Below, one piece after another: positions 32,003-54,996 of a DNA stretch of 64,000 bases. The notes under the pieces are model-generated. The model saw nothing but the letters and a program-made list of their open reading frames with translations, did no database searches and had not been told where the DNA came from. Each line of letters opens with the position of its first letter. Position 1 is the first letter of the stretch. A program made the position numbers and the translations under genes. The DNA is from Cordylochernes scorpioides (Eukaryota; Arthropoda; Arachnida; Pseudoscorpiones; Chernetidae), in contig CP092881.1 of assembly GCA_030710605.1 (NCBI GenBank), forward strand, positions 72,076,923 through 72,140,922. The letters run 5' to 3'.

Positions 32003-32006
32003 CGGT

Positions 32007-33854
32007 TGTTGGGACACGTTTTTGTAACCATACCCCAACAGAATATGTATGTATGATCAACGTCAAATGGATACATGGCTTCCCTCCCACATAGACTTAT
32101 AGACCACCTTTTTGCCCAGAAACCTAGACTCTTGATGACACCAGACTTCCATGCCGAAAGCTGATGCCTGGTAAAGAAGAAGACACCAGTGACATCCAGA
32201 GATATCCGCGCTGGAAGCTGTTGTATCATATGTACATATATGCCCTCATTTAAAATCTAGGTAAAGGTGACCAGAAGAAATGGAGAAGGAAGATTTCTAA
32301 AAGACTAAGGCCATATAAATATCTTTCCCGAGAGAGGGAAGCATCGTGTTACAGTCCAAGGGGAAGGGGGCTCGTTATATATACCTTCCCGAGAAAAGGG
32401 AGGATCGTATTTCAATCCATGTGGAGGGGGGCCTGGTGTCTGATGAAATTTTACACTAGTGCCGTGGCTGTTTCTCTCTTTAGATTTTTTTTGTTTTGGT
32501 AATACTATATGTTCTATTTTGATGGGAGAGGCCTGGAGCGTCTGTGAAATTGTATACTGGAGCCGTTGGCCATTTTGATTGGTGTTTTTTTTTTCGACGA
32601 ATGAAAATGCCAGCCAATAGAAACTTTGGCGCGGCCAGCTAATGAAAATGGAGGGAGACAAAGATAAAAGAGGGTTTCGTTGCCAAAAAGAGATTCAATC
32701 TGAGTCGCTCAGTGAGAGGACAGTCTTCAGTCGGGAGACCAGACCTTTGCCGGCACTTTCGAGAAAAGGTAAGCCATTTGTCATTATGACTTAGCGCCCC
32801 CCCTTTTTGTGTAGTAACCAACCTAGATTTCGCATGGGCCCTAAAGGGCTTTAAGTAACTTCAGGTCACCTCTATCTAGATTACTATGTAAATAGCATAT
32901 CTCGTCAGTATAGACATGTTCCCAAATTTTAATTTATTTAAATAAATATCTAGAGAAATTTTCTTGTTTCCTCTCATACATATTTCATTCCTTTTGCTTT
33001 ATGGTACTACCCCCACACCTTAATTTCACAAATTGTACTAAATATAGAACTACCGACTCTGTTGGAATAGAGTTGTGTACTATATCTTTGCTGTGATATA
33101 TTGACACAGCAACAGTTGCAAATTACGACTTTATTAGGGCTACTTTGAGGGTATCTATCTGTCAGGTTTTAGTAATGTTTGTGCTTTTATGTGTTTCAGT
33201 GCGTTATCCCATCATATTTACCATTATACCATATTTTCTGATTCCTCGGGCTATTGTTACGCTGTTAGGAGGGTACGGCATTATGCAAACAGATTTGTAT
33301 GTTTGACTATTGTTTGTGTTATTTGGGCTATAAAAATGCCTTAATATGAATCTATTTACAGTTGATCTGTAGAAATTATAGAGATCTGTTGCTATAATTT
33401 TCCTCTATGAAATAGCTCCCAGCGTCTTCAGTGGGTTGCTAAACCTCCAGAAGGAGTCTTTTATAGATTGTCCAATTTAATAACGATTTCATGGGTTGTC
33501 TGATGAAATTGTATACTAGTGTCGTGGCTGTTTCCATCTTTAGACCTTTGTTCTGACAATATTATATGCTCGATCCCTGCTTTAGCTCAACTCTTAATCA
33601 ATAACAGAGTTTCCCCTTTTTTTTATTTATCCTGTTTGCACAAATTGCTTTACATGTGATGATGTAAAGACATAAGTCGATAGTGCATCATTGACAGCTG
33701 TACTTCTATTATACAACATTAAGGTCTTGCTGCGGGTTATATACATGGTGTTGTTGGCCTAAATTGCTATATATATATATACTTAAGTAAGGAAACTTTA
33801 ATAAGTCACATCGTGTATCCTCCCTTTTCATCTATCCAAACCGGGAACGCAACA
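32007..33854 (+). repeat. 5' LTR of the outer element (LTR A)
   Basis: 1848 bp. The first 36 bp fold back on themselves (TGTTGGG...CCCCAACA). A TATA-like 'gataaaagagg' lies at about 32661, and 'gagaaaag|gtaagcc' at about 32769 is a good splice donor, suggesting the leader starts within the LTR. AATAAA-like words lie near 32940. Variant words such as 'caccagtgacatccag' and 'aaggccatataaatatc' pair it with LTR D. Confidence 0.85.
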
Positions 33855-33855
33855 A

Positions 33856-33877
33856 TGTCGCCCGCCGCGGGGCTCGA
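33856..33877 (+). promoter_or_regulatory. candidate primer binding site (outer element)
   Basis: 'tgtcgcccgccgcggggctc' starts one base after the LTR. Its complement carries the TTCGAGCCCCGC T-loop/arm of a tRNA 3' end. The third base is T where a CCA-ending primer would require G; the inner copy shares the mismatch. Confidence 0.55.
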
Positions 33878-35330
33878 ATTTAGTATATGTTTCATCCCCT
33901 ATACTTTAGAAATATATACATAATGAAAAGCCATACTATTTTTAAGTATTGGTGAAGTAGTCCACGCATCCTGAGATTAACAGTCTATTATAAATCGTGA
34001 ATTTTAATTTATGCTTTCCGTTTCACTGGCATTTTATCAGGCAATGAAAGTTATGTTGAGGCGGTGTATACCGCATCACTCGCCACGGTCATTTACGATT
34101 CACATTGTTTGTGACAAAGCCTTAACAATTTATTGATTACATTTTTTATTTTTATTTTTTTTTAATTATTTTACACAGTATGAGAAATGAGGTTGGATTG
34201 CCATGGTTCAAATTTAGAACGGTGATCAGTGTTTTACAGTAGTCTACTGAAATGACTTAGCATTTTTTTTTTCATCATAGCTCTGATATAATTTTCTCAC
34301 AGCAGAGGTGAGTTCTGATAATTATTGCTGGATACAAATATCTTAACTTCATTTTAATAGCGCTTTCTATCAAGTCATACTAGCCTGTGCATCCAGATTA
34401 GGGCTAACATGCTGAATGATAGTTAATCGATTTTATTTTTTTTAGCGCATAGTGGATTGGGAGAGTGGCAAATATATGAGCCTTAAGGTGAAAATAGAAT
34501 TGAAGATCCAGTTAGCGTACCCGTGAGGAGAGAAGTTTTGATCACCATAGAAAGACGCACCTTTTTTTTCTCTCTTCGTAAAACCTTTTTTTATTTGAAA
34601 TCAATAATGGATAGAAATCTGGTTTTAACATTCCAATGGCAGAATTTCAAGGAATAGATCTGGTGACCAATTTGCGCGAGTACGTTTTAATCACTGTGGA
34701 ACTGTTTATTAACTTATGACAACTACCTGGGATAATCTTTTATAATATTCAAAGGAAAGGAGATGACTGGAGCTTGTGTCTACAAGACAGCTGAGATATC
34801 CCGAGGTGTGCTTGGACAGTTTTAAGTTGATGACAAGGCAGCAAAAAAGCCACCTGCGTTAGAGACAGGATCTATCTAATAATGGGGGTATAGGAGACAG
34901 GAGAGTTTATCGAGGCTCGATTTAACACTTATATATAATGAGGAAGTTAGCGGAATGCGAGTCTCCAGTGCGGAGTAATATCACCTAAAGGCTGTGAATA
35001 AGGATTGATAAAGTCGGGACACCCGAGCAAAAATATTACATTGAATATAAAATCGGAACCTGTAGGCGTGAGGCGGTATCGTGATTGGATTAGTTGGCTA
35101 GCACGCGAGGAGGGTGGCCCCCTTGACGACGTTTTCTGCCAAGTATGATCACTGGATACCGATAGACCGCTTAAAGGGTGTGCCCCCCGCATTGGAAATG
35201 TCATTGAAGATATGCCAGCATGCAGAGAAGAAAGGTCTAGGACGAGATGACGTTTCCTAAAATTGACATTTAAGGTGATACGCCTGGACTATAGATGAGG
35301 CAGTGAAGTCCATCTAGAATATGGCGCTAA

Positions 35331-37208
35331 TGTTGGGGCACGTTTTTGTAACCATTCCCCAACAGAAGGCGTATGTATAATCAACATAAAATGGATACAT
35401 GGCTTCCCTCCCACATAGACTTATAGACCATTTTTTTTTGCCCAGAAACTTAGACACTTGGTGACACCAGACTTCCATGCCGAAAGCTGATGCCTGGTGG
35501 AGAAGAAGACATCCAGAGACATCCGAGCTGGAAACTGTTGTTTCCTATGTACATATATTCCCCTCATCAAAAATTTAGATAGAGGTGACCAGAAAAAAAA
35601 ATGGAGAAGGAAGATTTCTAAAAGACTAAGCCTTATAAATATCCTTCCCGAAAAAAAGGAAGCATCACATTACAGTCCAGGTAAAAGGGGCCTGGGTCGA
35701 TTTTTAGCCAAGACGGGGGGCGATATATATACCGTCCCGAGAAAAGGGAGGATCGTATTACAGCCCATGTGGAGGAGGCCTGGGGTCTGATGAAATTTTA
35801 CACTATAGCCGTGGCTGTTTCTCTCTTTAGATTTTTTTGTTTTGGTAATACTATATGTTCTATTTTGATGGGAGAGGCCTGGGGCGTCTGTGAAATCGTA
35901 TACTGGAGCCGTTGGCCATTTTGATTGGTGTTTTTTTTTTCGACGAATGAAAATGCCAGCCAATAGAAACTTTGGCGCGGCCAGCGAATGAAAATGGAGG
36001 GAGACAAAGATAAAAGAGGGTTTCGTTGCCAAAAAGAGATTCAATCTGAGTCGCTCAGTGAGAGGACAGTCTTCAGTCGGGAGACCAGACCTTTGCCGGC
36101 ACTTTCGAGAAAAGGTAAGCCATTTGTCATTATGACTTAGCGCCCCCCCTTTTTGTGTAGTAACCAACCTAGATTTCGCATGGGCCCTAAAGGGCTTTAA
36201 GTAACTTCAGGTCACCTCTATCTAGATTACTATGTAAATAGCATATCTCGTCAGTATAGACATGTTCCCAAATTTTAATTTATTTAAATAAATATCTAGA
36301 GAAATTTTCTTGTTTCCTCTCATACATATTTCATTCCTTTTGCTTTATGGTACTACCCCCACACCTTAATTTCACAAATTGTACTAAATATAGAACTACC
36401 GACTCTGTTGGAATAGAGTTGTGTACTATATCTTTGCTGTGATATATTGACACAGCAACAGTTGCAAATTACGACTTTATTAGGGCTACTTTGAGGGTAT
36501 CTATCTGTCAGGTTTTAGTAATGTTTGTACTTTTATGTGTTTCAGTGCGTTATCCCATCATATTTACCATTATACCATATTTTCTGATTCCTCGGGCTAT
36601 TGTTACGCTGTTAGGAGGGTACGGCATGATGCAAACAGATTTGTATGTTTGACTATTGTTTGTGTTATTTGGGCTATAAAAATGCCTTAATATGAATCTA
36701 TTTACAGTTGATCTGTAGAAATTATAGAGATCTGTTGCTATAATTTTCCTCTATGAAATAGCTCCCAGCGTCTTCAGTGGGTTGCTAAACCTCCAGAAGG
36801 AGTCTTTTATAGATTGCCCAATTTAATAACGATTTCATGGGTTGTCTGATGAAATTGTATACTAGTGTCGTGGCTGTTTCCATCTTTAGACCTTTGTTCT
36901 GACAATATTATATGCTCGATCCCTGCTTTAGCTCAACTCTTAATCAATTACAGAGTTTCCCCTTTTTTTATTTTATTTATCCTGTTTGCACAAATTGCAT
37001 TACATGTGATGATGTAAAGACATAAGTCGATAGTGCATCATTGACAGCTGTACTTCTATTATACAACATTAAGGTCTTGCTGCGGGTTATATACATGGTG
37101 TTGTTGGCCTAAATTGCTATATATATATATATATACTTAAGTAAGGAAACTTTAATAAGTCACATCGTGTATCCTCCCTTTTCATCTATCCAAACCGGGA
37201 ACGCAACA
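35331..37208 (+). repeat. 5' LTR of the inner element (LTR B)
   Basis: 1878 bp. The first ~500 bp share diagnostic words with LTR C (acatccagagacatccgagc, aagccttataaatatcc). From about 35990 onward it shares variants with LTRs A and D instead (gggagacaaagataaaagag, ctcagtgagagg). Confidence 0.85.
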
Positions 37209-37209
37209 A

Positions 37210-37231
37210 TGTCGCCCGCCGCGGGGCTTGA
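37210..37231 (+). promoter_or_regulatory. candidate primer binding site (inner element)
   Basis: Same 'tgtcgcccgccgcggggct' as at 33856, one base after the LTR end. Confidence 0.55.
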
Positions 37232-38306
37232 ATTTAGTATATGTTTCATCCCCTATACTTTAGAAATATATACCTAATGAAAAGCCATACTATTTTTAAG
37301 TATTGGTGAAGTAGTCCACGCATCCTGAGATTAACAGTCTATTATAAATCGTGAATTTTAATTTATGCTTTCCGTTTCACTGGCATTTTATCAGGCAATG
37401 AAAGTTATGTTGAGGCGGTGTATACCGCATCTCTCGCCGCTGTCTTTTACGATTCACATTGTTTGTGGCAAAACCTTAATATTATCATTGATTTCTGATA
37501 TCAAAGTAAAACGTTTATGGGGATGAGTATCTTTTATTCTGGTCTTCTCAAGCTTTCGAGCTTGTCCGCCCTTCTACAGGAGAAACATATACAATATATC
37601 AAGAAAATATAACGTCGCCTGATGCTAAAACTATTATGATTCTATGTACATATATATATACATTAGGAAGTTCTGCATATTATTTGTTTTCTTAAGACAT
37701 TTTTTTTTGGTTAAGGTATTTATACATATTCTACTATTGTTTGCTATATTCTATGAATTATCTTATAGGTTAGAAATTCTATTATTTAAGTAGTTTTATA
37801 ATAGTTATTGGCTATTACATATAAGTTACTTATATTATTGTTGATATTATTAGCTGGTACTAGGAAATATTGTGTTATATGTTTCGGGCAAATCTATTTC
37901 CTATTAATGCTATTGTGTTTTCTGAATAATAGAGAATCAATTATAAGCCTTTGATATTTGCTGTTTATGTTATTGTAATGTATTCTAGGTTCTCCTAATG
38001 CGAAAGTGTGGCCTGTTTCTTTGCAGTGTTGGAAGAATTAGAGATCTACCGCCTTGATTTATAATGTTGCGCCTATGTTCATATATTCTATTGCTGACTC
38101 TCCTTCCTGTCTCCACCACGTATTTGGCTTGGCAGTTGTTGCATCCTATGGAATATATTGCCTTTTATTTTTCAGTTTTGGTTAATGGGTTTTATGACAT
38201 TAGGATTATTTTAGATAGTGGATTTTAATGGTGGAGCCAATGTTAGGGGAATTACTGTAATATGTTTGGATACCGAAGTTTCTTAAGTAGTTGGCTATTG
38301 TTATAG

Positions 38307-38600
38307 ATGTTTGTGAGTATGGAATGTAACATATCGCCCTATAGATATTTTGTGGTTTTGTTTATTGGGTTATTGATAGTTATACTTTTGTGGAAATGTT
38401 GTAATATAAAGGTGGTTTGGTATCCTGCTTGCTGGACATTATTTATAATGTTCTGTGTCTCAATCATTTTGAATTCTGTTGCGAGCACCATTGATTACAA
38501 TTTCTTTATTTTACTTTCTCAAATTATTATATACAGTATGAGAAATGAGGTTGGATTCCCATGGTTCAAATTTAAAACGGTGATCAGTGTTTTACAGTAG
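38307..38600 (+). CDS. hypothetical hydrophobic frame inside inner element
   Basis: 97 codons with two or three hydrophobic stretches (YFVVLFIGLLIVILLW; LFIMFCVSIILNSVAS). It lies in the ~1 kb segment missing from the outer copy, apart from its last 20 codons, which the outer copy shares at 34180-34240. No second intact copy supports it, and AT-rich DNA readily produces such frames. I do not recognise it. Confidence 0.15.
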   Translation: MFVSMECNISPYRYFVVLFIGLLIVILLWKCCNIKVVWYPACWTLFIMFCVSIILNSVASTIDYNFFILLSQIIIYSMRNEVGFPWFKFKTVISVLQ

Positions 38601-39873
38601 TCTACTGAAATGACTTAGCATTTTTTTTCATCATAGCTCTGATATAATTTTCTCACAGCAGAGGTGAGTTCTGATAATTATTGCTGGATACAAATATCTT
38701 AACTTCATTTTAATAGCGCTTTCTATCAAATCATACTAGCCTGTGCATCCAGATTGGGGCTAACATGCTGAATGATAGTTAATCGATTTTATTTTTTTTA
38801 ACGCATAGTGGATTGGGAGAGTGGCAAATATATGAGCCTTAAGGTGAAAATAGAATTGAAGATCCAGTTAGCGTACCCGTGAAGAGAGAAGTTTGATCAC
38901 CATAGAAAGACGCGCTTTTTTTTTCTCTTCGTAAAACCTTTTTTATTTGAAATCAATAATGGATAGAAATCTGGTTTTAACATTCCAATGGCAGAATCTC
39001 AAGGAGTGGATCTGGTGACCAATTTGCGCGAGTACCTTTTAATCACTGTGGAACTATTTATTAACTTATGACAACTACCTGGGATAATCTTTTAAAATAT
39101 TCAAAGGAAAGGAGATGACTGGAGCTTGTGTCTACAAGACAGCTGAGATATCCCGAGGTGTGCTTGGACAGCTTTAAGCTAATGACAAGGCAGCAAAAGC
39201 CACCTGTGTTAGAGACAGGATCTATCTAATAATGGGGGTATAGGAGACAGGATAGTTTATCGAGGCTCGATTTAACACTTGTATATAATGAGGAAGTTAG
39301 CGGAATGCGAGCCTCCAGTGCGGAGTAAAATCACCTAAAGGCTGTGAATAAAGATTGATAAAGTCGGGACACCCGAGCAAAGATATTACATTGAATATAA
39401 TTCGGAACCTATAGGCGTGAGGCGGTATCTTGATTGGATTAGATGGCTAGACACGCAAGGAGGGAGGCCCCCTTTGACGACGTTTTCTGCCAAGTATGAT
39501 CACTGGATACCGATAGACCGCTTAAAGGGTGTGCCCCCCGCATTGGAAATGTCATTGAAGATGTGCCAGCATGCAGAGAAGAAAGGTCTAGGACGAGATG
39601 ACGTTTCCTAAAATTGACATTTAAGGTGATACGCCTGGACTATAGATGAGGCAGTGAAGTCCATCTAGAATATGGCGCTAATTCCAGAACAAAATGTGGA
39701 TGGATCGAGCTGAGGTGACGACTCCATATTAAATATACCTCTATAAATTCTTAAATGTCCACAGTGAATTATACAAGTTGCACACCTATCTCATGAGCCA
39801 GGAATGTAATTATCAGACTGACAGTAAGTAATAATATAAAATTTCTTATCCAGGAACAAACAAGACCCCTGAT

Positions 39874-40158
39874 ATGCAACAAAGTCTACAAAATAATTTC
39901 CCTATCAAATTCTCAGTATATCATCATAACTCAACAGAAAACCCAGTTACAATTGGTATCATAAAGGGCGAAATAACTTTGTCCTTTCCCAATCCAATGT
40001 GCACCTGTTACCACATAGACAGTGATCTTATAACCACATTTGATTTCGTTTCAGCATGTTGTGAGAGAATTGAACTCATGGAATTGCAGCCTTTTAATTA
40101 CTATGCCTCATACTATATAAATACAAGAAGGAAATTTCTAATAACAACCGCTAAGTGA
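39874..40158 (+). CDS. 94-codon frame conserved in both element copies (inner)
   Basis: Starts MQQSLQNNFPIKFSVYHHNS and contains MCTCYHIDSD and SACCERIELM. The frame is intact here and at 46846-47130 in the outer copy. The two differ at six bases, five of which change the residue, so there is no sign of selection on the protein. It is the only frame in the internal region that stays open in both copies. No homology recognised; it could be a relic of a larger gene or chance. Confidence 0.3.
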   Translation: MQQSLQNNFPIKFSVYHHNSTENPVTIGIIKGEITLSFPNPMCTCYHIDSDLITTFDFVSACCERIELMELQPFNYYASYYINTRRKFLITTAK

Positions 40159-43012
40159 CAACCAGAGCGAACTCAGAAGTAATGAGCCGAGGGGAAATTG
40201 ACAGAGTTAGTGTAGACAGTTTAACTTTACGCAGGTCTACAAGGGTGAAAAGGCCCACACAGTGTAAATTCTACTTAGACTGTCGCCACTAAATAGGATT
40301 TTGGAGTGTGTACGAAGAATCAACCCAATAGAATGAGAAGTTTAGAGATTTCAATCTTTTCTTTTTTAACCTTTTTTTTTCTCGAAGTAAGACTTCATTA
40401 GGATTTTTTTTCTCAAACTATTTCTTGTTAAATCCCGAGTTTCAAAGACCAGTGAGAATAATGTATACCATTGTGAATTAATTATTTAGTGTAAATCTGA
40501 AATTTTAGTTATTATCAGGAGTAATAGGTGAAGGAAGGTGTAGGAAATCACAACTTAGAGGGGGGCTATGTCTAAAACAACAAACCTAATAGGCATCCTA
40601 TGGCTTGTGTTGGGTAATTCAGAAACCCTATAATCCCTGGCCTTCAGGTAGTAGCTTTGAAATAGGTTTCTAATGAGAACATGAAAGGTCAATCTCTCAG
40701 AGTGAAGTTGTGAAGTATAGGGACCCTAAGCCAGGGGTAGAAGTTAAGTAGGCCCAGACTGTAGTCGATCCTTGGAAAGCACTTGAGAATGTTAGTGTTG
40801 GGTAGTGAATCGTAAACCCTATAAATCCATCTTTCAATAGAGTGCTGAGGTAGGACTACTGCAAAGGGGGCAGACGCACGAGGAAGTAAGAAGAAAGTGA
40901 CTTCACCCACGGTGGCTAGGGGAATGACTCAATCCGCTTTTATGAGGTGTCACGTTTAATGGTCCTTTATCCGCCATTATAATTTGTGTATGTCTTTATA
41001 GAATTGTTGTGAAAAGTCGCTTAGTGTCAAGGCAAGGGCAGTTTTTGAAGTTACACTGATTCCTTTTTTTTTTCTTGGTAGGTTAGCTTCCAGGTTATTT
41101 AGACTTGTCAACAATTATTGTTAACAATCATTTAGTGAGTATAATGAATTAATATATATATAGAGCTTGTACAGAGGCATTTTCTTTTGAGTAATATAGG
41201 GCTTTAGTTCCCAATTTGTTTTAATTTTATTATTTTATTTGATTTCACATTGTGTCCTGAAAGATGTTATCATTTGTTAGGATCTATTGATATAGATAAA
41301 TGAGTATTTTGGCCTTTATAGCAGCTTTCAACCTTAGTTTGTATGCGTACCGCGAATGATAGGGGGGAGGGTGTATGAATGAATTGGTGCAATGAATGTA
41401 GAAAAAGGTTAAAAACTATTATATTGTAAGCCCAAATTACATTAGAATAGGGTTAAGGACTTTAATAGGTTCGATTTTTATTTTATTTTATTTTTTATTT
41501 CGAATTTTGTTAGGACCGAGAAGCCTCAAACAGGACAACTACAACTCTATCTAGTTAGAAAATATTCGCTCCCTTTTTGTTAGGTCCCTCGTTAGGGGGT
41601 ATAATTTTCCTTTGATTTTCTTTTATCTTAGTTTAGCTTGAATTCTAAGGATTGTGGATAAATGATCCCTATCCCGACCCTCAGACTTGGAGATAGTGGA
41701 AGGCAAGGATCAAGCTGAATTTCCCACTCAACTCCTCCTCGCAAGAGGAAACGAAGAGGTATAGATTGAATTTTATGCAGGATGGGGGATTTGTTTTAGC
41801 CATGCCGTATAGCCTGGGGTATAACGGCGCGACCTTGGGTAACCGATCTGACACCGTAGTTTCGACGCTTTTGGCGTGGCTGGAGCGAGGGTGTTCCAGA
41901 CAGGAGGTCCTGTAAGATTGGCAAGTAGGCAGAGATTGCCCAGTTATTCTAGACGAAGTAGTTTCGGTCTATTGAATTTTTTTTGGTACCAGTTTGATCC
42001 CCCATAGCTAGCGGAAGTTTCTTCTAATAAAGGATTCGCCCTGCCATACGTTTTGTTGGAATGAATTCGAGCATAAGACCGATTCGAGAGACAGAATAAG
42101 TAATTATTAGGACCTTCAACGAGTTTAGACTCGTTCCATGATAGGATAATATTTTAAAGTATTAGTTAACTATAAGGACCGCGAACGAGACGCCAGAACG
42201 AGCCAATGGGTCAAAGTTTTAGAAGTGTTGTATTGAGGACAGTAGAATTAAGAGCAGTTATACAGGGAGTAGAATTCTGAAGGAATTTGTAAAAGAACCA
42301 AAATTTCAGATTGATAAAATTCAAATTTATAAGATGTAGATTTATAGGGTTCAGGTCAATGAATAGAGAGTATATTGGTAGATGAAAGTAATATGAATTT
42401 CTTGGAAGGGGGAGGTAGCTGAACTGTACACACCCCAGAGACAAGGTAAACGGAGTCACAAACAAAATGGGAGAAGTTGATTAGTTTCTCTGTCAAACAG
42501 AGAGCTTTCTTCATACGGTTGTCACCCTAGATTCAAAAGGACTGTGTAGCTTAATAGAGGTCTGGGCTATGTTCCATTTGACCAAGATTCTAAATGACGT
42601 TCCCACCTGGGTTGAGAGTATTGTAACAGAGGAATCTAACACATAAGAGAAAACACACCCTCCAGTAGGATCGGGATAGACGAATATTACCCAGTGACCA
42701 ACTCGTGATTCCAGACTGAATAAGATTAAAAACTTAACTGAGATTTTAAACCTTGAACCTTCAGCGCACAAATATATATAATGTGTTTTCATTTTCTTAT
42801 TGAATATGTTATTATTTTATATCATATATATTATATTATAATCATATACTATTCATTTCAACAATTTTATTTCCTTTGATATTCATGATATTAGTAATAT
42901 TTACCTGCCATATTGCGATTTTTTTTAACATGTTGTCGTGGCTTATTCTTCCCTCAAGGCATGATCTATTTTATCCTTATTGTCTTTTATCCGCCTTACT
43001 TGTATATGTATA

Positions 43013-43828
43013 TGTGATGATTTAAGACCATGGAATTGTTGTAAATAGTCTAAATATCCACTACCACATGTTCCACCCCATGACTGTATATAACTTCTTA
43101 TGTACTGCACATAGAAAGCCTCAACTAACATCAATCTGTACCGCGTAAGAATCTAATAAAGTATTGCAACTGTACAGATAGAAGGAATGGAGAGAGACAG
43201 GAGAAAGTTAAGGTTAAAACAAATCAGGCTTAGAGGATCGTAGAAGTCAAACCTAAGAGGTAGGCCTAGAAGAGAACATAATTATTAATAACGCCACAGT
43301 TAACCTTCTGACCCCGGACACCCTGCGAGCTAAGTTTAAACCAATATTTCCGGACAAGACAGGACGTATCTTGTGACCAGCAGTCATAAAAGTTTGAGAG
43401 ACGCCCAATTTCCGGAACAAGACCGGACGTATTTCTTCCGTCAAAGAGATAAGCCCGGCCCAATCAGAAGACAATACCTAAGTAGGTCAACCAATAGCCC
43501 ACTACCACGTGAAAAAGTCCCACCAATTAGGAAAGAATCACCTAAATAGGTCAGCCAATTAGAAAGCAGCAAGGTCGTGGTGTTAAATCGAGGCCCTAGA
43601 ATTGCCAGTCTTCGCTTGGATTCCAACGGTAACACTTGCTCTTAAGATCTCTCTCTCTCTCCTCATCCCATTCCTTCTTGACGTCAGACGCTTTTAGTGG
43701 AATCTCTGTTTGTTTATTTCACCTTTGGCCCAGCTGTGTCGCCTTCCACCACGACTGCACGGTAGAGTTGACATCGAGGTTCGTCTAGCATCAGGTAACA
43801 CTGGTCCCAGAGGTCCCAAGATATCACA
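43013..43828. mobile_element. solo LTR of a second LTR family
   Basis: 816 bp starting TGTGATGATTT and ending GATATCACA, flanked by TATA at 43009-43012 and 43829-43832. The outer element has the uninterrupted site at about 52204-52215. AATAAA lies at about 43154. No internal domain is present, so it is the product of LTR-LTR recombination. Confidence 0.8.
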
Positions 43829-44751
43829 TATATATATTTTGTCATCATATATAATTTTGTATTGGTTTTCTTTATCATCTATCATGGGATGATTTTTATC
43901 ATATTTAATCACTATCTGCATGATACATGTTTTCTTCAATATATATATTATACCCATCATATAACATGGAAGGATTCATTTTATCATTACATATTTCGTG
44001 CCTTATTTAATAATTACTTTCACAATTTGTTTTCTGTAATTTTTTTTTATTAGCAAAAGTCATCATGTCATAGGCTAATCATTATATACCAAGATATTTC
44101 TTTCAGCTAACTATAATTATCCTTTCCTTTGATTGTATATATATAACTATACCACACGAATGTCTTGATTGGTACTTAAATAAAGATACTGGCATGTTTT
44201 AGAAGTTGGACTAGTCAGTTATTTCTAAACGACTTCTTGGCGCCCAATATTTTTTAAATATAATATGTAATAGGGAAATGTTCTAACTGTATTGCTAACA
44301 GAAAGAAGGTAGCAATGAAACCAGCACACCAAGAGGCAAGGATGAGGTGAGAGGACTTACCACAAGGATGGCCTACTCCTCAAGGCCAAAGAAGAAAGTG
44401 GAAGGGTGGTATATATACCCATGAATGGTGAGACAGATGACCTTGCTTACTTCCATACATATGATATGACTGTCCCCCATAACCTATGTTGATAACAGTG
44501 TGCTGACAGAATAATAACACATAAAAACCCCTTTGCCAGGATGCACAATGCCCACTAATGTTCGGAATAATAAACATCTAGAATAGCATACCATCATTTT
44601 GATTAGCCTTATCTTCCCTATAGGTTTCGGTACATCTGGCTTCACCTAGTAATGGAAAATGCATTTTGTTAGAAATGGGCCTGCTTTCATAGTAACTGAT
44701 GAAAGGCAGATGAATAATGAATAGCACAAACGCATTTGTCCATTACTTGGC

Positions 44752-44762
44752 AGGGGGAGGAT
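44752..44762 (+). promoter_or_regulatory. polypurine tract, inner element
   Basis: 'agggggaggat' directly before the TGTTGGGG of LTR C. The identical tract precedes LTR D (53127-53137). Confidence 0.65.
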
Positions 44763-46637
44763 TGTTGGGGCACGTTTTTGTAACCATACCCCAACAGAAG
44801 GCGTATGTATAATCAACATAAAATGGATACATGGCTTCCCTCCCACATAGACTTATAGACCATTTTTTTTGCCCAGAAACTTAGACACTTGGTGACACCA
44901 GACTTCCATTCCGAAAGCTGATGCCTGGTGGAGAAGAAGACATCCAGAGACATCCGAGCTGGAAACTGTTGTTTCCTATGTACATATATTCCCCTCATCA
45001 AAAATTTAGATAGAGGTGACCAGAAAAAAAAATGGAGAAGGAAGATTTCTAAAAGACTAAGCCTTATAAATATCCTTCCCGAAAAAAAGGAAGCATCACA
45101 TTACAGTCCAGGTAAAAGGGGCCTGGGTCGATTTTTAGCCAAGACGGGGGCGATATATATACCGTCCCGAGAAAAGGGAGGATCGTATTACAGCCCATGT
45201 GGAGGAGGCCTGGGGTCTGATGAAATTTTACACTATTGCCGTGGCTGTTTCTCTCTTTAGATTTTTTTGTTTTGGTAATACTATATGTTCTATTTTGATG
45301 GGAGAGGCCTGGGGCGTCTGTGAAATCGTATACTGGAGCCGTTGGCCATTTTGATTGGTGTTTCTTTCGGCGAATGAAAATGCCAGCCAATAGAAACTTT
45401 GGCGCGGCCAGCGAATGAAAACGGAGAGAGACAAGAATAAAAGGGGGTTTCTTTGCCAAAAGGCAGATTCAATCGGAGTCGCTCAGGGAGAGGACAGTCT
45501 TCAGTCGGGAGACCAGACCTTTGCCGGCACTTTCGAGAAAAGGTAAGCCATTTGTCATTATGACTTAGCGCCCCCCCCTTTTTGTGTAGTAGCCAACCTA
45601 GATTTCGCATGGGCCCTAAAGGGCTATAAAGTAACTTCATGTCACCTCTATCTAAATTTTACTATGTAAATAGCATATCTCGTCAGTATAGACATGTTCC
45701 CAAATTTTAATTTATTTAAATAAATATCTAGAGAAATCTTCTTGTTTCCTCTCATACATATTTCATTCCTTTTGCTTTATGGTACTACCCCCCACACCTT
45801 AATTTCACAAATTGTACTAAATATAGAACTACCGACTCTGTTGGAATAGAGTTGTGTACTACATCTTTGCTATGATATATTGACACAGCAACAGTCGCAA
45901 ATTACGACTTTATTAGGGCTACTTTGAGGGTATCTATCTGTCAGGTTTTAGTAATGTTTGTACTTTTATGTGTTTCAGTGCGTTATTCCATCATATTTAC
46001 CATTATACCATATTTTCTGATTCCTCGGGCTATTGTTACGCTGTTAGGAGGGTACGGCATGATGCAAACAGATTTGTATGTCTGACTATTGTTTGTGTTA
46101 TTTGGGCTATAAAAATGCCTTAATATGAATCTATTTACAGTTGATCTTTAGAAATTATAGAGATCTGTTGCTATAATTTTCCTCTATGAAATAGCTCCCA
46201 GCGTCTTCAGTGGGTTGCTAAACCTCCAGAAGGAGTCTTTTATAGATTGCCCAATTTAATAACGATTTCATGGGTTGTCTGATGAAATTGTATACTAGTG
46301 TCGTGGCTGTTTCCATCTTTAGACCTTTGTTCTGACAATATTATATGCTCGATCCCTGCTTTAGCTCAACTCTTAATCAATTACAGAGTTTCCCCCTTTT
46401 TTTTTTTATTTATCCTGTTTGCACAAATTGCTTTACATGTGATGATGTAAAGACATAAGTCGATAGTGCATCATTGACAGCTGTACTTCTATTATACAAC
46501 ATTAAGGTCTTGCTGCGGGTTATATACATGGTGTTGTTGGCCTAAATTGCTATATATATATATACTTAAGTAAGGAAACTTTAATAAGTCACATCGTGTA
46601 TCCTCCCTTTTCATCTATCCAAACCGGGAACGCAACA
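44763..46637 (+). repeat. 3' LTR of the inner element (LTR C)
   Basis: 1875 bp. It pairs with LTR B over the 5' part. Its 3' part has private variants (gagagagacaagaataaaag, tagccaacctag, ctataaagtaacttcatg). Confidence 0.85.
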
Positions 46638-46845
46638 ATAATTCCAGAACAAAATGTGGATGGATCGAGCTGAGGTGACGACTCCATATTAAATATACCT
46701 CTATAAATTCTTAAATGTCCACATATATTTCCACAGTGAATTATACAAGTTGCACACCTATCTCATGAGCCAGGAATGTAATTATCAGACTGACAGTAAG
46801 GAATAATATAAAATTTCTAACCCAGGAACAAACAAGACCCCTGAT

Positions 46846-47130
46846 ATGCAACAAAGTCTACAAAATAATTTCCCTATCAAATTCTCAGTATATCATCATA
46901 ACTCAACAGAAAACCCAGTTACAATTGGTATCATAAAGGGCGAAATAACTTTGTCCTTTCCCAATCCAATGTGCACCTGTTACCACATAGACAGTGATCT
47001 TATAACCACATTTGATTTCATTTCAGCATGTTGTGAGAGAATTGAACTCATGGAAATGCAGCCTTTTAACTACTATGCCTCATACTGTATAAATACAAAA
47101 AGGAAATTTCTAATAACAGCCGCTAAGTGA
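46846..47130 (+). CDS. 94-codon frame conserved in both element copies (outer)
   Basis: Counterpart of 39874-40158, intact, differing by V/I, L/M, Y/C, R/K and T/A replacements. It lies about 210 bp downstream of LTR C in the current arrangement, but in the outer element's own order it is mid-internal. Confidence 0.3.
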   Translation: MQQSLQNNFPIKFSVYHHNSTENPVTIGIIKGEITLSFPNPMCTCYHIDSDLITTFDFISACCERIELMEMQPFNYYASYCINTKRKFLITAAK

Positions 47131-47728
47131 CAACCAGAGCGAACTCAGAAGTAATGAGACGAGGGGAAATTGACAGAATTAGTGTGGACAGTTTAACTTT
47201 ACGCAGGTCTACAAGGGTGAAAAGGCCCACACAGTGTAAATTCTGCTCAGACTGTCGCCACTAACTAGGATTTTGGAGTGTGTACGGAGAATCATCTCAA
47301 TAGAATGAGAAGCTTAGAGATTCCAACTTTTTTTTTCTTTTAAACCTTTTTTTTTCAAGGTAAAACTTCAATAGGATTTTTTTTTCTATACAAACTATTT
47401 CTTGTTAAATCCCGAGTTTCAAAGACCAGTGAGAATAATGTATACCATTGTGAATTAATTATTTAGTGTAAATCTGAAATTTTAGTTATTATCGGGAGTA
47501 TAGGTGAAGGAAGGTGTAGGAAATCACAACTTAGAGGGGGGCTATGTCTAAAACAACAAACCTAATAGGCATCCTATGGCTTGTGTTGGGTAATTTAGAA
47601 AAGAAACCCTATAATCCCTGGCTTTCAGGTAGTAGCTTTGAAATAGGTTTCTAATGAGGACATGAAAGGTCAATCTCTCAGAGTGAAGTTGTGAAGTATA
47701 GGGACCCTAAGCCAGGGGTAGAAGTTAA

Positions 47729-49963
47729 CCCTTAACTGGACGGGTTGGGTAGATTCCGCCCATGCATAAACTTAATATAAGAAAAAAATATATTTTTCGT
47801 TTACTGAGAGCTAACAGCTTTGGTGTATTCTAATTTTACAGTGATACAAACAATTTCCATTCATCGTTTAAAAATATAAGTTTTGGGAGGGCGGTTAAAT
47901 TTGCATGTGTGGGCGGATTCCGCCCATGCCGTCCAGAAGCGTGAGAATTTTTCATGTTAGGGTTATAGCTGATTGCTCATTCTCGAGTCGCTTTCTTCAG
48001 CTATTTTTTAGCTTCCATTCATAAAATAAGACTTCTTTCTTTGGCTAAGTAGAATTTATTCTTTTAGATTAAAAAAAAAACAACTTCCTTAATTTTTTTT
48101 ATCAAGGTAAGACTTTTTATTTTTGAAATTCTATTTATAATGGAAGACGAAATTTGGAATAAGAATTTTTATGATGATTCTGAAACTGAAAATTATTCAT
48201 TGAACGAATCTTCAGATGTCAGTACAGATGAGGAATGTGATTCAATTCTTACCACTGTTCAAATGTCTTCAAGTAATTGTTTCATTGGGAAAAATGGCTA
48301 TAAATGGAACAAGAATCATGCAATAATTGGAAGAACCCGTTCTCATAACATAATTACACACTTACCTGGTCTGAAAGGCCCTGCTAAACCGAAGCCAAAT
48401 TGTGGCATAGATATATTCAACTTATTTTTTACTGCCGCAATTATAAAACAAATATCTGAATTTACAAATGCAAAAATTGAAGAATTTCGCCAAAGAATTT
48501 CAGATTTGACCAAAAGTACTTACTCAAATTTTACAAGTGAAATAGAAATAAGAGCATTCTCAGGTTTGTTGTATCTAGCTGGAGTTTACAAATCAGGTCA
48601 TGAAAATGTAGAATCTTTGTTTGCCTCAGATGGAACAGGCCGTGACATTTTTCGCTCTGTAATGAGTGTGAAGCGTTTCCCTTTTCTATTACTTTGTATT
48701 AGATTTGATAATTTCAAGACAAGATGCAAAGAAGATAGACTCTCACCCATAAGAGATATTTCCCAAACCATTATTGAAAAATTTAAAAGTTGTTATACAC
48801 CTGCTGAATACCTTACTGTTGACGAAATGCTTGTAGGGTTTCGGGAAAAATGTCCATTCAAAATTTATATACCCTCAAAACCTAATAAATATGGGATAAA
48901 AATAGTGATACTAGCAGACTCAAGAACACATTATATGTATAATGCAATGGTATATACAGGAAAATCTAAAACTCAAAGTCAAAAGAACTATCCCTGCCAA
49001 CCCAAATAGTTTTAGATATTAGTCGACCACTTTGGAAGAGTAATAGAAATATTACAGCAGACAACTGGTTTACTTCAATAGAATTAGTAGAACATGGCCT
49101 TACATATTTAGGAACGATGAGAAAGAACAAACCTCAGAATCCACCACAATTCCAACCGCATCCTAAAAGAGAATCAGGAACATCTATTTTTGGTTTTTCT
49201 GGAACAAAAACTTTAGTCTCCTATGTTCCCAAAAAAAGAAAATCAGTAATCCTTATATCTTCGATGCATCATGACAATAAATGTGATGAAACAACAGGAA
49301 AACCTGACAATATAATGGATTATAATCTAACAAAAGGAGGTGTAGATACCATTGACCAAATGGTCTCTAATTTTTCTACCTCTCGTCGATCCAGAAGATG
49401 GCCTTTGGCACTTTTTTATGCCCTCTTAGATATCACAGCTCTGAATTCTTACATCATCTTCAACTATCAGATTGATAAAAAGGATCAAAAAGAAAGAAGT
49501 ACCTTTATTGTTGATCTTAGGAGATCCTTGATTGATGAACACCTGGCCACACGTAATCTAAATTCCCTCCCGGTGGAATTACAGACGACAATGAAAAAAT
49601 TAAAAAATAATGATGGTTCAAGTACATCAAGAGGATCTACGATGCCACAAGAATCTGATACTCCAAAAAGGTGCTACAAATGTCCATCAAAAAATGCGGG
49701 AAAAGTGAAAACCTTATGCTCTGTATGTCAACTAAGCGTCTGTAAAAAACATTTTTTAATTATTTGTGAAAACTGTAAATAGATTATATTTAGAATTTTT
49801 AGAAGTCAAAATCTCTGTATATTAACATTTGTAATCATTAAATAATCTTTCAAATATTGATTTAATTCATTATTTAGCGCTTATTTCGTAAAGGTACATA
49901 AGTGGGTTGAATCTACCCACCCCGTCCAGTTACGTAAGTAAAAATCACCCGTCCAGTTAAGGG
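47729..49963 (+). mobile_element. piggyBac-type DNA transposon
   Basis: 2235 bp flanked by TTAA (47725-47728 and 49964-49967). The ends are CCCTTAACTGGACGGG and its exact inverse. Near the right end a second, internal copy of AACTGGACGGG plus GTGGGTAGATTC mirrors the left end's continuation, an asymmetric subterminal repeat. The unoccupied TTAA is seen at 40744-40747 in the inner element. Confidence 0.92.
48140..49782 (+). pseudogene. piggyBac transposase, one frameshift
   Basis: The first frame 48140-49009 gives the N-terminal acidic region, the DDE domain start and the first catalytic Asp (LTVDEMLVGFREKCPFKIYI). The continuation is one frame away, from about 48985 to 49782: LDISRPLWKSN, the second Asp (TADNWFTSIELVEHGL), and the third Asp region (MDYNLTKGGVDTIDQM). 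It ends in a cysteine-rich finger (CYKCPSKN...CSVCQLSVCKKH...CENC). A single small indel near 48980 thus breaks an otherwise complete gene of roughly 545 codons. All three catalytic aspartates are present. The enzyme family performs cut-and-paste transposition at TTAA. Confidence 0.9.
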
Positions 49964-52900
49964 TTAAGTAGACCCAGACTGTAGTTGATCCTTGGAAAGC
50001 ACTTGAGAATGTTAGTGTTGGGTAGTGAATCATAAACCCTATAAATCCATCTTTCAATAGAGTGTTGAGGTCGGACTACTGCAAAGGGGGCAGACGCACG
50101 ATGAAGTAGGAAGAAAGTGAATTCACCCACGGTGGCTAGGGGAGTGACTCAATTCCGCTTTTATGAGGTGTCACGTTTAATGGTTCTTTATTCGCCCTTA
50201 TATTTGTGTATGTCTTTATAGAATTGTCGTGAAAAGTCGCTTAGTGTCAAGGCAAGGGCAGTTTTTGAAGTTACACTGATTTTTTTTTTTGGTAGGTTAG
50301 CTTCCAGATTATTTAGAATTGTTAACAATTATTGTTAACAATCATTTATCGAGTATAAAGTATTAGTATATATAGAGCTTGTACAGAGGCAATTTCTTTT
50401 GAGTAACCTAGGGCTTTAGTTCCCAATTTATTTTAATTTTATTATTTTATTTGATTTCACATTGTGTCCTGAAAGATGTTATCATTTGTTAGGATCTATT
50501 GATATAGATAAATGAGTATTTTGGCCTTTATAGCAGCTTTCAACCTTAGTTTGTATGCGTACCGCGAATGATAGGGGGGAGGGTGTATGAATGAATTGGT
50601 GCAATGAATGTAGAAAAAGGTTAAAAACTATTATATTGTGAGCCCAAATTACATTAAAATAGGGTTAAGGACTTTAATAGGATCGATTTTTTTTTTAAAT
50701 TTTGTTAGGACCGAGAAGCCTCAAGCAGGACAACTACAACTCTATCTAGTTAGAAAATATTCGCTCCCTTTTGTTAGGTCCCTCGTTAGGGGGTATAATT
50801 TTCTTTTGATTTTCTTTTATCTTAGTTTAGCTTGAATTCTAAGGATTGTGGATAAATGATCCCTATCCCGACCCTCAGACTTGGAGATAGTGGGAGGCAA
50901 GGATCAAGCCGAAAGCCCACTCATCTCCTCCTCGCAAGAGGAAGCGAAGAGGTATAGATTGAATTTTATGCAGGATGGGGATTTGTTTTAGCCATGCTGT
51001 ATAGCCTGGGGTATAACGGCGCGACCTTGGGTAACCGATCTGACACCGTAGTTTCGACGCTTTTAGCGTGGCTGGAGCGAGGGTGTTCCAGGCGGGAGGT
51101 CCTGTAAGATTGGCATGTAGGCAGAGATTGCCCAGTTTTTTTTTTTCTAGACGAAGTGTTTCCGTCTATTGAATTTTTTTGGTACCAGTTTGATCCCCCA
51201 TAGCTAGCGGAAGTTTCTTCTAATAAAGGATTCGCCTGCCATACGTTTTGTTGGAATGAATTCGAGCATAAGAACGATTCGAGAGACAGAATAAGTAATT
51301 ATTAGGACCTTCAACGAGTTTAGACTCGTTCCATGATAGGATAAGATTTTAAAGTATTAGTTAACTATAAGGACCGCGAACGAGACGCCAGAACGAGCCA
51401 ATGAGTCAAAGTTTTAGAAGTGTTGTATTGAGGACAGTAGGATTAAGAGCAGTTATACAGGGAGTAGAATTCTGAAGGAATTTGTAAAAGAACCAAAATT
51501 TCAGATTGATAAAATTCAAATTTATAAGATGTAGATTTATAGGGTTCAGGTCAATGAATAGAGAGTATATTGGTAGATGAAAGTAATATGAATTTCTTGG
51601 AAGGGGGAGGTAGCTGAACTGTACACACCCCCAGAGACAAGGTAAACGGAGTCACAAACAAAATGGGAGAAGTTGATTAGTTTCTCTGTCAAACAGAGAG
51701 CTTTCTTCATACGGTTGTCACCCTAGATTCAAAAAGACTGTGTAGTTTAATAGAGGCCTGGGCTATGTTCCATTTGACCAAGATTCTGAATGACGTTCCC
51801 ACCTGGGTTGAGAGAGTATTGTAACAGAGGAATCTAACACATAAGAGAAAACACACCCTCCAGTAGGATCGGGATAGACGAATATTACCCAGTGACCAAC
51901 TCGTGATTCCAGACTGAATAAGATTGAAAACTTAACTGAGATACTAAACCTTGAACCTTCAGCACACAAATATATATAATGTGTTTTCATTTTCTTATTG
52001 AATATGTTATTATTTTATATCATATATATTATATTATAATCATATACTATTCATTTCAACAATTTTATTTCCTTTGATATTCATGATATTAGTAATATTT
52101 ACCTGCCAAGTTGCGATTTTTTTTAACATGTTGTCATGGCTTATTCTTCCCTCAAGGCATGATCTATTTTATCCTTATTGTCTTTTATCCGCCTTACTTG
52201 TATATGTATATATATTTTGTCATCATATATAATTTTGTAGTAGTTTTCTTTATCATCTATCATGGGATGATTTTTATCATATTTAATCACTATCTGCATG
52301 ATACGTGTTTTCTTCAATATATATATTATACCCATCATATAACATGGAAGGATTCATTTTATCATTACATATTTCGTACCTTATTTAATAATTACTTTCA
52401 TAATTTGTTTCTGTATTTTTTTTTAATTTAGCAAAAGTCATCATGTCATAGGCTAATCATTATATACCAAGATATTTCTTTCAGCTAACTATAATTATCC
52501 TTTCCTTTGATTGTATATGTATAACTATACCACACGAATGTCTTGATTGGTACTTAAATAAAGATGCTGGCATGTTTTAGGAGTTGGACTAGTCAGTTAT
52601 TTCTAAACGACTTCTTGGCGCCCAATTTTTTTATATATAATATGTAATAGGGAAATGTTCTAACTGTATTGTTAGCAGAAAGAAGGTAGCAATGAATCCA
52701 GCACCCCAAGAGGCAAGGATGGGGTTGAGAGGACCTACCACAAGGAAGGCCTACTCCTCAAGACCAAAGAAGAAAGTGGAAGGGTGGTATATATACCCAT
52801 GAATGGTAAGACAGATGACCTTGCTTACTTCCATACATATGATATGACTGTCCCCAATGGCCTGTGTTGATAACAGTGGGCTTACAGAATAATAACAAAA

Positions 52901-53137
52901 GAAACCCTTTATCAGGATGCACGATGCCCACTAATACTCAGAATAATAAACATCTAGAATGACATACCATCATTTGATTAGCCCTATTTTCCCTATAGGT
53001 TTCGGTACATCTGGCTTCACCTAGTAATGGAAAATGCATTTCGCTAGAAGTGGGCCTGCTTTCATAGTAACTGATGAAAAGCAGATGAATAATGAGTAGC
53101 ATAAACGCATTTGTCCATTACTTGGCAGGGGGAGGAT

Positions 53138-54992
53138 TGTTGGGGCACGTTTTTGTAACCATACCCCAACAGAAGATGTATGTATGATCAACGTCAAATG
53201 GATACATGGCTTCCCTCCCACATAGACTTATAGACCACCTTTTCGCCCAGAAACCTAGACTCTTGATGACACCAGACTTCCATGCCGAAAGCTGATGCCT
53301 GGTAGAGAAGAAGACACCAGTGACATCCAGAGATATCCGCGCTGGAAGCTGTTGTATCATATGTACATATATGCTCCTCATTTAAAATCTAGGTAAAGGT
53401 GACCAGAAGAAATGGAGAAGGAAGATTTCTAAAAGACTAAGGCCATATAAATATCTTTCCCGAGAGAGGGAAGCATCGTGTTACAGTCCAAGGGGAAGGG
53501 GGCTCGTTATATATACCTTCCCGAGAAAAGGGAGGATCGTATTTCAATCCATGTGGAGGGGGGCCTGGTGTCTGATGAAATTTTACACTAGTGCCGTGGC
53601 TGTTTCTCTCTTTAGATTTTTTTTTGTTTTGGTAATACTATATGTTCTATTTTGATGGGAGAGGCCTGGAGCGTCTGTGAAATTGTATACTGGAGCCGTT
53701 GGCCATTTTGATTGGTGTTTTTTTTTCGACGAATGAAAATGCCAGCCAATAGAAACTTTGGCGCGGCCAGCGAATGAAAATGGAGGGAGACAAAGATAAA
53801 AGAGGGTTTCGTTGCCAAAAAGAGATTCAATCTGAGTCGCTCAGTGAGAGGACAGTCTTCAGTCGGGAGACCAGACCTTTGCCGGCACTTTCGAGAAAAG
53901 GTAAGCCATTTGTCATTATGACTTAGCGCCCCCCCTTTTTGTGTAGTAACCAACCTAGATTTCGCATGGGCCCTAAAGGGCTTTAAGTAACTTCAGGTCA
54001 CCTCTATCTAGATTACTATGTAAATAGCATATCTCGTCAGTATAGACATGTTCCCAAATTTTAATTTATTTAAATAAATATCTAGAGAAATTTTCTTGTT
54101 TCCTCTCATACATATTTCATTCCTTTTGCTTTATGGTACTACCCCCACACCTTAATTTCACAAATTGTACTAAATATAGAACTACCGACTCTGTTGGAAT
54201 AGAGTTGTGTACTATATCTTTGCTGTGATATATTGACACAGCAACAGTTGCAAATTACGACTTTATTAGGGCTACTTTGAGGGTATCTATCTGTCAGGTT
54301 TTAGTAATGTTTGTACTTTTATGTGTTTCAGTGCGTTATCCCATCATATTTACCATTATACCATATTTTCTGATTCCTCGGGCTATTGTTACGCTGTTAG
54401 GAGGGTACGGCATGATGCAAACAGATTTGTATGTTTGACTATTGTTTGTGTTATTTGGGCTATAAAAATGCCTTAATATGAATCTATTTACAGTTGATCT
54501 GTAGAAATTATAGAGATCTGTTGCTATAATTTTCCTCTATGAAATATCTCCCAGCGTCTTCAGTGGGTTGCTAAACCTCCAGAAGGAGTCTTTTATAGAT
54601 TGTCCAATTTAATAACGATTTCATGGGTTGTCTGATGAAATTGTATACTAGTGTCGTGGCTGTTTCCATCTTTAGACCTTTGTTCTGACAATATTATATG
54701 CTCGATCCCTGCTTTAGCTCAACTCTTAATCAATTACAGAGTTTCCCTTTTTTTTATTTTATTTATCCTGTTTGCACAAATTGCATTACATGTGATGATG
54801 TAAAGACATATGTCGATAGTGCATCATTGACAGCTGTGCTTCTATTATACAACATTAAGGTCTTGCTGCGGGTTATATACATGGGGTTGTTGGCCTAAAT
54901 TGCTATATATATATATATACTTAAGTAAGGAAACTTTAATAAGTCACATCGTGTATCCTCCCTTTTCATCTATCCAAACCGGGAACGCAACA
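53138..54992 (+). repeat. 3' LTR of the outer element (LTR D)
   Basis: 1855 bp, sharing LTR A variants over its length. Followed by CGGT. Confidence 0.85.
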
Positions 54993-54996
54993 CGGT

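What the first reader, a model, noticed from the sequence alone, without database searches (positions are those of the whole stretch)
32007..54992. Nested pair of large non-autonomous LTR retrotransposons (animal LARD-like)
Four ~1.85 kb LTRs lie at 32007, 35331, 44763 and 53138. Diagnostic variants pair the 1st with the 4th and the 2nd with the 3rd. The outer pair is flanked by CGGT and the inner pair by CTAA/ATAA. A polypurine tract and primer-site candidates are present, but no gag or pol frame exists in about 7.5 kb of internal sequence even though paired LTRs look only slightly diverged. Large, recently mobile, protein-less LTR elements are well described in plants (LARDs) but I know of few in animals.
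Basis: partly seen in the sequence, partly recalled or inferred. Interest (0 to 1): 0.8.

Follow-up and report, generated by a model that had tools for sequence, protein, structure and literature searches.

The report
Protein-less retrotransposon pair with coding relatives
Two copies of a jumping DNA element that has lost its protein genes sit one inside the other in this animal genome, and the same genome holds close relatives that still carry the genes needed to move such elements.

Summary
Four LTRs (32007, 35331, 44763, 53138) form two nested LTR retrotransposons: outer A (TSD CGGT) and inner B (TSD CTAA, one copy mutated). The element is non-coding: longest frame 107 aa against 104 in shuffles, and 97 stop-free segments without a retroelement Pfam domain. 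The host genome (2.62 Gb, 24 contigs) shows the origin. Coding relatives of Ty3/gypsy type share LTRs, 5' leader, a 1.24-kb untranslated segment (X) and about 3.6 kb of 3' non-coding DNA, and carry gag and pol. A and B lack about 4.5 kb between the end of X and the last 45 pol codons: one internal deletion, its ends sharing GTG. The breakpoint is the same in 11 of 11 protein-less copies checked and occurs 253 times genome-wide; the undeleted end of X occurs 138 times and the intact pol junction 593 times. So this is an animal LARD that arose by internal deletion, with its coding family alongside; the nearest analogues are mouse IAP 1-delta-1 and ETn/MusD. Movement in trans is inferred. New member of a known kind.

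The parts
32003..32006 (+). target site duplication CGGT, left flank of outer element A
   Evidence: matches CGGT at 54993-54996
32007..33854 (+). LTR1: 5' LTR of outer element A
   Evidence: 14 substitutions in 1847 sites to LTR4
33856..33873 (+). primer binding site of A, variant form TGTCGCCCGCCGCGGGGC (the canonical form in sister copies is the complement of the tRNA-Lys(CUU) 3' end)
34561..35330 (+). first part of untranslated segment X in A
   Evidence: X is part of the 5' region of coding copies
35327..35330 (+). TSD CTAA of inner element B (left)
   Evidence: empty site GGCGCTAATTCC in B's own copy
35331..37208 (+). LTR2: 5' LTR of inner element B; mosaic: first part like LTR3, later part like LTR1/LTR4
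37210..37227 (+). primer binding site of B (variant form)
37209..38913 (+). 5' non-coding leader of B, shared with coding relatives (includes the about 1-kb stretch 37493-38490 that A lacks)
38914..40154 (+). segment X of B: 1.24 kb of 5' untranslated sequence; in coding copies it lies about 0.2 kb before gag
40154..40155 (+). deletion breakpoint: about 4.5 kb (0.2 kb before gag, gag, and pol except its last 45 codons) missing
40155..40292 (+). relic of the last 45 pol codons plus stop in B, in frame
   Evidence: (tblastn of the pol C-terminal piece, E 4e-20)
40293..44751 (+). 3' non-coding region of B, shared with coding relatives (contains private insertion about 43013-43829)
44752..44761 (+). 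polypurine tract AGGGGGAGGA of B
44763..46637 (+). LTR3: 3' LTR of inner element B
46638..46641 (+). TSD ATAA (CTAA with one substitution), right flank of B
46642..47126 (+). second part of segment X in A
47127..47264 (+). relic of the last 45 pol codons plus stop in A
47729..49963 (+). piggyBac-type DNA transposon inserted in A at TTAA, inverted termini CCCTTAACTGGACGGGT; transposase in two overlapping frames
   Evidence: (DDE_Tnp_1_7 E 1e-41 and 4e-26)
53127..53136 (+). polypurine tract AGGGGGAGGA of A
53138..54992 (+). LTR4: 3' LTR of outer element A
54993..54996 (+). TSD CGGT, right flank of A

Best explanation
A and B belong to a protein-less LTR retrotransposon lineage that arose by one internal deletion from a Ty3/gypsy-type element still present in the same genome. 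The deletion, about 4.5 kb with ends sharing GTG, removed the last 0.2 kb before gag, gag, and pol except its last 45 codons. What works in cis was kept: LTRs, primer site, 5' leader and X (probably holding the packaging signal), 3' region, polypurine tract. The RNA is transcribed from the LTR, packaged by Gag and copied and integrated by Pol made from coding copies, with a tRNA-Lys(CUU) primer and 4-bp target duplications. A inserted first, B then inserted into A, and later part of LTR2 was homogenised with A-type LTR sequence. Shown: structure, shared parts, common breakpoint, site counts, open coding frames in relatives, young LTR pairs. Inferred: movement in trans, packaging role of leader and X, single origin of the deletion, conversion of LTR2.
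For: At C4:13487500 a family LTR and the canonical primer site are followed by gag (329 aa; Retrotrans_gag 3e-8, zf-CCHC 1e-6) and pol (1185 aa in an overlapping frame; RVT_1 5e-21, RT_RNaseH 6e-33, Integrase_H2C2 3e-21, rve 1e-13; DTG motif), then by B's 3' region (89-98%) and LTRs (95%). At C3:99194300 B's leader and complete X (97.5%) run into the stretch before gag and an open gag, with pol and the intact pol junction further on. Breakpoint X|pol tail: same place in A, B, L009-L013, L015, L016, and in L014 (C3:41909709) and L030 (C1:80231336) with one mismatch each. Genome counts at up to 2 mismatches: deleted junction 253, undeleted X end 138, intact pol junction 593, middle of X 401; controls 0 in all four. 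RT/RNase H piece: 104 scored hits, all at least 99% identical with no stop inside. LTR pair distances: A 0.0076, C2 0.0043, C12 0.0065, C24 0.0059. Further TSDs GATC, GTAG, GTAA in 3 of 5 pairs. Canonical primer site at an LTR end: 201 hits; tRNA-Lys(ctt) genes with the matching 3' end at 3 of 4 loci read.
Against: No transcript, packaging or transposition data. In 2 of 5 extra LTR pairs no TSD was found by the simple end search. The commoner primer site is a variant (632 hits) with four differences from the tRNA-Lys complement, one opposite the CCA end, which sits badly with regular re-copying of the site from the tRNA. The coding copies were read in pieces: no single locus was read from LTR to LTR, and at C2 and C3 the middle of gag-pol is known only from the hits. 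Site counts include partial copies. The coding family is heterogeneous: at C2 another 2-kb segment stands in place of X, and at C4 the leader is missing.
Confidence: 0.92

Rival explanations
1. A and B are ordinary coding elements that each decayed after insertion.
For: A 45-codon pol tail is present, and other copies with different internal deletions exist: L069 joins X to mid-pol, L052 joins the leader to a late pol piece.
Against: The same breakpoint in 11 of 11 checked protein-less copies and at 253 sites means it was there before the copies spread; LTR pairs are young.
Confidence: 0.03
2. The lineage codes for a small protein of its own in X or the 3' region.
For: The 107-aa frame (39835-40155) is open without stop or shift in 5 of 9 other copies; a 79-aa minus-strand frame (40692-40928) is open in 9 of 9 sequences compared, one of them the coding copy L058.
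Against: The 107-aa frame is shifted in 3 of 9 and stopped in 1 of 9; the 79-aa frame shows no excess of third-position or synonymous changes; length is at chance level; no retroelement or credible other Pfam match in 97 segments.
Confidence: 0.05
3. The tandem LTR order is an assembly artefact rather than a nested insertion.
For: 1.85-kb repeats at 96-99% identity are prone to misassembly, and LTR2 is a mosaic.
Against: Each element has its own TSD, the pre-insertion sequence is preserved in the sister copy, and A's halves continue each other across B.
Confidence: 0.03
4. The lineage is moved by some other LTR element, not by its coding relatives.
For: Unrelated helpers are possible, and the variant primer site differs from the tRNA-Lys form.
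Against: The relatives share LTR ends, leader, X, 3' region and PPT, and are abundant and little changed in pol; the variant primer site also occurs in a coding copy (C2).
Confidence: 0.05

Closest known systems
Mouse IAP subtype 1-delta-1 (PMC6466679, passage read)
   Same: Internal deletion of gag-pol inherited by many copies; [quoted passage not shown]
   Different: The IAP deletion is 1.9 kb and leaves an open gag-pol fusion frame; here about 4.5 kb is gone and only 45 pol codons remain. IAP is a mammalian class II endogenous retrovirus; here Ty3/gypsy type.
Mouse ETn with MusD (PMC6466679, passages read)
   Same: LTR element without coding capacity; parent found through traces of homology; coding-competent relative in the same genome.
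   Different: Trans-movement was demonstrated there. About 240 ETn against about 100 MusD in C57BL/6; here the sites counted are 253 deleted and 593 intact pol junctions. (That ETn carries unrelated sequence in place of its genes is recalled, from no call.)
LARDs of barley and relatives (Kalendar et al. 2004: not held, not seen; described in PMC3532108, passages read)
   Same: Large LTR elements with a conserved non-coding internal domain.
   Different: Barley LARDs have about 4.4-kb LTRs and 3.5-kb domains; here 1.85 kb and about 5.7 kb, with the coding family identified.
Non-coding LTR retrotransposons of Culex quinquefasciatus (PMC3286476, passages read)
   Same: Insect LTR elements lacking coding potential.
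   Different: Those 38 carry tandem repeats and apparently lack a master copy; here no large tandem array was found in 31500-55500 and coding relatives exist.

Membership tests
LTR retrotransposon (general) | Direct LTRs with TG..CA ends and target site duplication | tested here: met
   TGTTGGG..CAACA; TSD CGGT, CTAA/ATAA, and GATC, GTAG, GTAA in 3 of 5 other pairs
LTR retrotransposon (general) | Primer binding site complementary to a tRNA 3' end, and polypurine tract | tested here: met
   some copies carry the exact tRNA-Lys(CUU) complement; A and B carry a variant with four differences; PPT AGGGGGAGGA
LARD | Large element with long LTRs and conserved non-coding internal domain | tested here: met
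   about 9.4 kb canonical length, internal about 5.7 kb, no coding frame found, layout shared by the 8 copies fetched
LARD | Multiple recently mobile copies | tested here: met
   253 junction sites; 4 LTR pairs 0.4-0.8% apart
LARD | Moved in trans by an autonomous element | not testable with these tools
   coding relatives with open frames found; movement not measured
Ty3/gypsy (coding relative) | gag with CCHC, then protease, RT, RNase H, integrase in this order | tested here: met
   on pieces of L058; protease by DTG motif only, no Pfam hit
Endogenous retrovirus / errantivirus | env gene after pol | tested here: not met
   no plus-strand frame of 120 aa or more after pol in L058/L059; one locus only
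IAP 1-delta-1; ETn/MusD | Sequence homology to mouse class II endogenous retroviruses | not tested
   compared for way of working only; membership not claimed

The most novel reading that the evidence does not exclude
The deleted lineage is an old parasite of its own family that persists by renewal. Copies 11-16% apart in X share the one deletion breakpoint, yet B combines it with LTR and leader types found in coding-type copies. Protein-less RNAs may keep recombining with the coding element to take up current LTRs and leader, so that one deletion rides along through successive bursts of the family.
Probability: 0.25. Interest if true: 0.45.

Novelty: new member of a known kind. Interest (0 to 1): 0.3.

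Why it matters
Protein-less LTR elements in animals are sometimes listed without a parent (38 in Culex apparently lacked a master copy). Here the deleted form, the undeleted form and other deletion derivatives lie in one genome with a recognisable breakpoint. That makes it a clear natural case for asking what such elements must keep in cis and how they compete with the copies that feed them outside mammals.

Tried and rejected
That was wrong: answered only after that draft, gave 401 X sites against 253 deleted junctions, and searches showed X as part of the 5' untranslated region of coding copies. Confidence in the main reading went from 0.90 to 0.92 for this reason; interest went down from 0.35 to 0.30, because a plain deletion is a more ordinary origin.

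Long translated stretches were not accepted by the Pfam tool because of internal stops; 97 stop-free segments of 35 aa or more from B were scanned instead. Shorter segments, and the 69 segments of copy A, were not scanned. Rfam over the window at gathering scores: one tRNA. A tRNA matching the variant primer site: 0 hits with one exact pattern. An 87-aa frame in X against PDB sequences: best E 0.061. A protein search with that frame did not complete. The species is unknown, and no Repbase/Dfam was on hand. Paper searches made.

Left out of the dating: C10 (the fixed cut ran past its ends, 0.026; BLAST shows 9 mismatches in 1791 columns), C23 (8 mismatches in 1430 columns, not put through) and B (0.0151, inflated by the mosaic). 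The C4 coding copy's LTRs, compared over 1506 bases, gave 0.0047 and 0.0087. C3:41905916/41913829 is not a simple LTR pair: its internal match ends about 340 bases before the second LTR hit. C23 carries about 4.6 kb of other DNA near its 5' LTR, and the stretch read for C10 begins inside the leader.

Full report
OBSERVATION. LTR1 32007-33854 and LTR4 53138-54992 differ at 14 of 1847 sites; LTR2 35331-37208 and LTR3 44763-46637 at 28 of 1869. The outer pair is flanked by CGGT, the inner by CTAA and ATAA; B's own copy of the target reads GGCGCTAATTCC, so the target was CTAA and one base changed later. PPT AGGGGGAGGA precedes both 3' LTRs, and the primer site follows one base after both 5' LTRs.

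LTR2 IS A MOSAIC. Of 47 substitution sites that pair LTR1 with 4 and LTR2 with 3, 46 lie in columns 22-621 of the alignment. Beyond column 621, 23 of 34 variable sites are private to LTR3. The first part of LTR2 is closest to L055 (95.2%), its later part to A-type LTRs (L004 98.8%), and B's leader to L040 (98.9%), among loci fetched by then. I read this as conversion of LTR2 by A-type sequence. It removes an apparent contradiction: by whole LTRs the nested B looks older than A (0.0151 against 0.0076), but in columns 22-500 B differs at 2 of 466 sites and A at 4 of 445.

NON-CODING. The longest frame in B's internal region is 107 aa; 300 shuffles gave mean 104, 95th percentile 136. Of 97 stop-free segments of at least 35 aa, none matched a retroelement family; 10 unrelated families matched one segment each, best E 0.044. 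The 107-aa frame is open in 5, shifted in 3 and stopped in 1 of 9 other copies; a 79-aa minus frame is open in 9 of 9 sequences but without a coding pattern of change.

THE FAMILY. The window is C19:72076923-72140922 of a 2.62-Gb, 24-contig genome. The LTR query gave 3355 first-look candidates; 40 were scored, all at least 96% identical. Eight LTR-hit pairs had their internal regions fetched, five also their LTRs. The internal regions follow B's, mostly at about 5.7 kb. The stretch 37493-38490 was in one of the eight (L013), though many of the 30 loci carry it; 43013-43829 was in none of the eight. TSDs GATC, GTAG and GTAA were read in 3 of 5 pairs.

CODING RELATIVES. LTR end plus the tRNA-Lys form of the primer site gave 201 hits, control 0. 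Of 30 exact-match loci read, two (L050, L051) run from a family LTR into DNA unrelated to B's leader, and a third (L037) runs into another LTR. After L051 lie gag and pol with Retrotrans_gag, CCHC, a DTG motif, RT, RNase H, H2C2 and rve, then B's 3' region and LTRs; no plus-strand frame of 120 aa or more follows pol there. L050 runs into mid-pol. At C2:121426700 the leader is followed by a 2-kb segment (U) and gag; U also occurs in L032, L036, L042, L047 and L049. The RT/RNase H piece has 104 scored hits, all at least 99% identical, none with a stop inside. No copy is singled out beyond description.

ORIGIN OF THE PROTEIN-LESS FORM. A, B and L009-L016 have segment X (38914-40154 in B) between leader and pol tail; the last 45 pol codons stay in frame with their stop. 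The middle of X occurs 401 times, more than the 253 deleted junctions. At C3:99194300 (L068) leader and complete X run on, 217 bases before the gag ATG, into an open gag; the RT piece and intact pol junction follow at the expected distance. The undeleted end of X occurs 138 times. So X belongs to the 5' untranslated region of one coding subfamily (U takes its place in another), and the protein-less form lacks about 4.5 kb (4524 bases, reckoned from L068 and L058 together). The two ends share GTG; in some undeleted sites listed they share GTGACAA, which may be what joined them. The breakpoint is the same in A, B, nine other copies (L009-L016, L030) and 253 sites in all. L069 shows a different deletion (X to mid-pol). 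X distances: 0.6-1.4% among L009-L012 and L014-L016, 1.9-2.3% from these to B, 2.7-3.2% to L013, about 6% to L054, about 11% to L030; L054 and L030 cover only part of X. One old deletion, then a recent burst.

PRIMER. The canonical site is the complement of the tRNA-Lys(CUU) 3' end. That end, at up to one mismatch, has 53 hits (19 exact), some of them element primer sites themselves, such as C3:143453948 next to L050. Of four loci read, three hold tRNA-Lys(ctt) by ARAGORN and one is called tRNA-Glu(ctc); L066 has two sites but one call. The variant site of A and B has 632 hits, including the coding copy at C2. Why it persists is not explained.

MECHANISM. RNA from the LTR, packaging by the relatives' Gag, tRNA-primed copying and integration by their Pol. 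Inferred from kept cis parts, young LTR pairs, TSDs and open relatives; not demonstrated.

KNOWN OR NEW. It works most like mouse IAP 1-delta-1 and ETn/MusD (PMC6466679, passages) and fits the plant-derived term LARD (PMC3532108, passages). Non-coding LTR elements are reported in Culex (PMC3286476, passages), LARDs listed in honey bee (PMC4028053, passages). Hence a new member of a known kind. The paper searches could not use the species name, which is unknown.

Noticed in passing
G000 C2:51596457, 51605026, 51613599: Three primer sites 8.57 kb apart on one strand, each with its deleted junction (C2:51593486, 51602055, 51610628): looks like a tandem array of protein-less elements sharing LTRs.
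   Followed up: no
33856-33873, 37210-37227: Variant primer site (632 genome hits against 201 canonical, each at up to one mismatch) differs from the tRNA-Lys complement at four places, one opposite the CCA end; one exact pattern for a matching tRNA gave 0 hits.
   Followed up: partly
L062:1481-3450 and L068: Coding copies carry one of two unrelated untranslated segments, U or X, at the same place before gag.
   Followed up: partly
L069: A second deletion derivative: X joined to the middle of pol with about 70 bases between.
   Followed up: no
47729-49963: piggyBac-type transposon in copy A, flanked by TTAA, transposase in two overlapping frames.
   Followed up: partly
26661-28080: Tandem array with a period of about 69 bases, open in one frame over 254 aa with a 23-aa repeat.
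   Followed up: no
2365, 10602, 18385, 22075, 22816, 29091, 63541 and others: Many copies of a roughly 310-base dispersed repeat at 82-94% identity in both orientations, SINE-like in size.
   Followed up: no
57053-57514: Mariner/Mos1-type transposase N-terminus (HTH_48, HTH_32) on the minus strand.
   Followed up: no
12079-13212: Open frame with several C2H2 zinc fingers, perhaps a host gene.
   Followed up: no
L059:2245-6434: At the C4 coding locus the 3' end carries two LTRs separated by about 400 bases of 3' internal region, a partial tandem.
   Followed up: no
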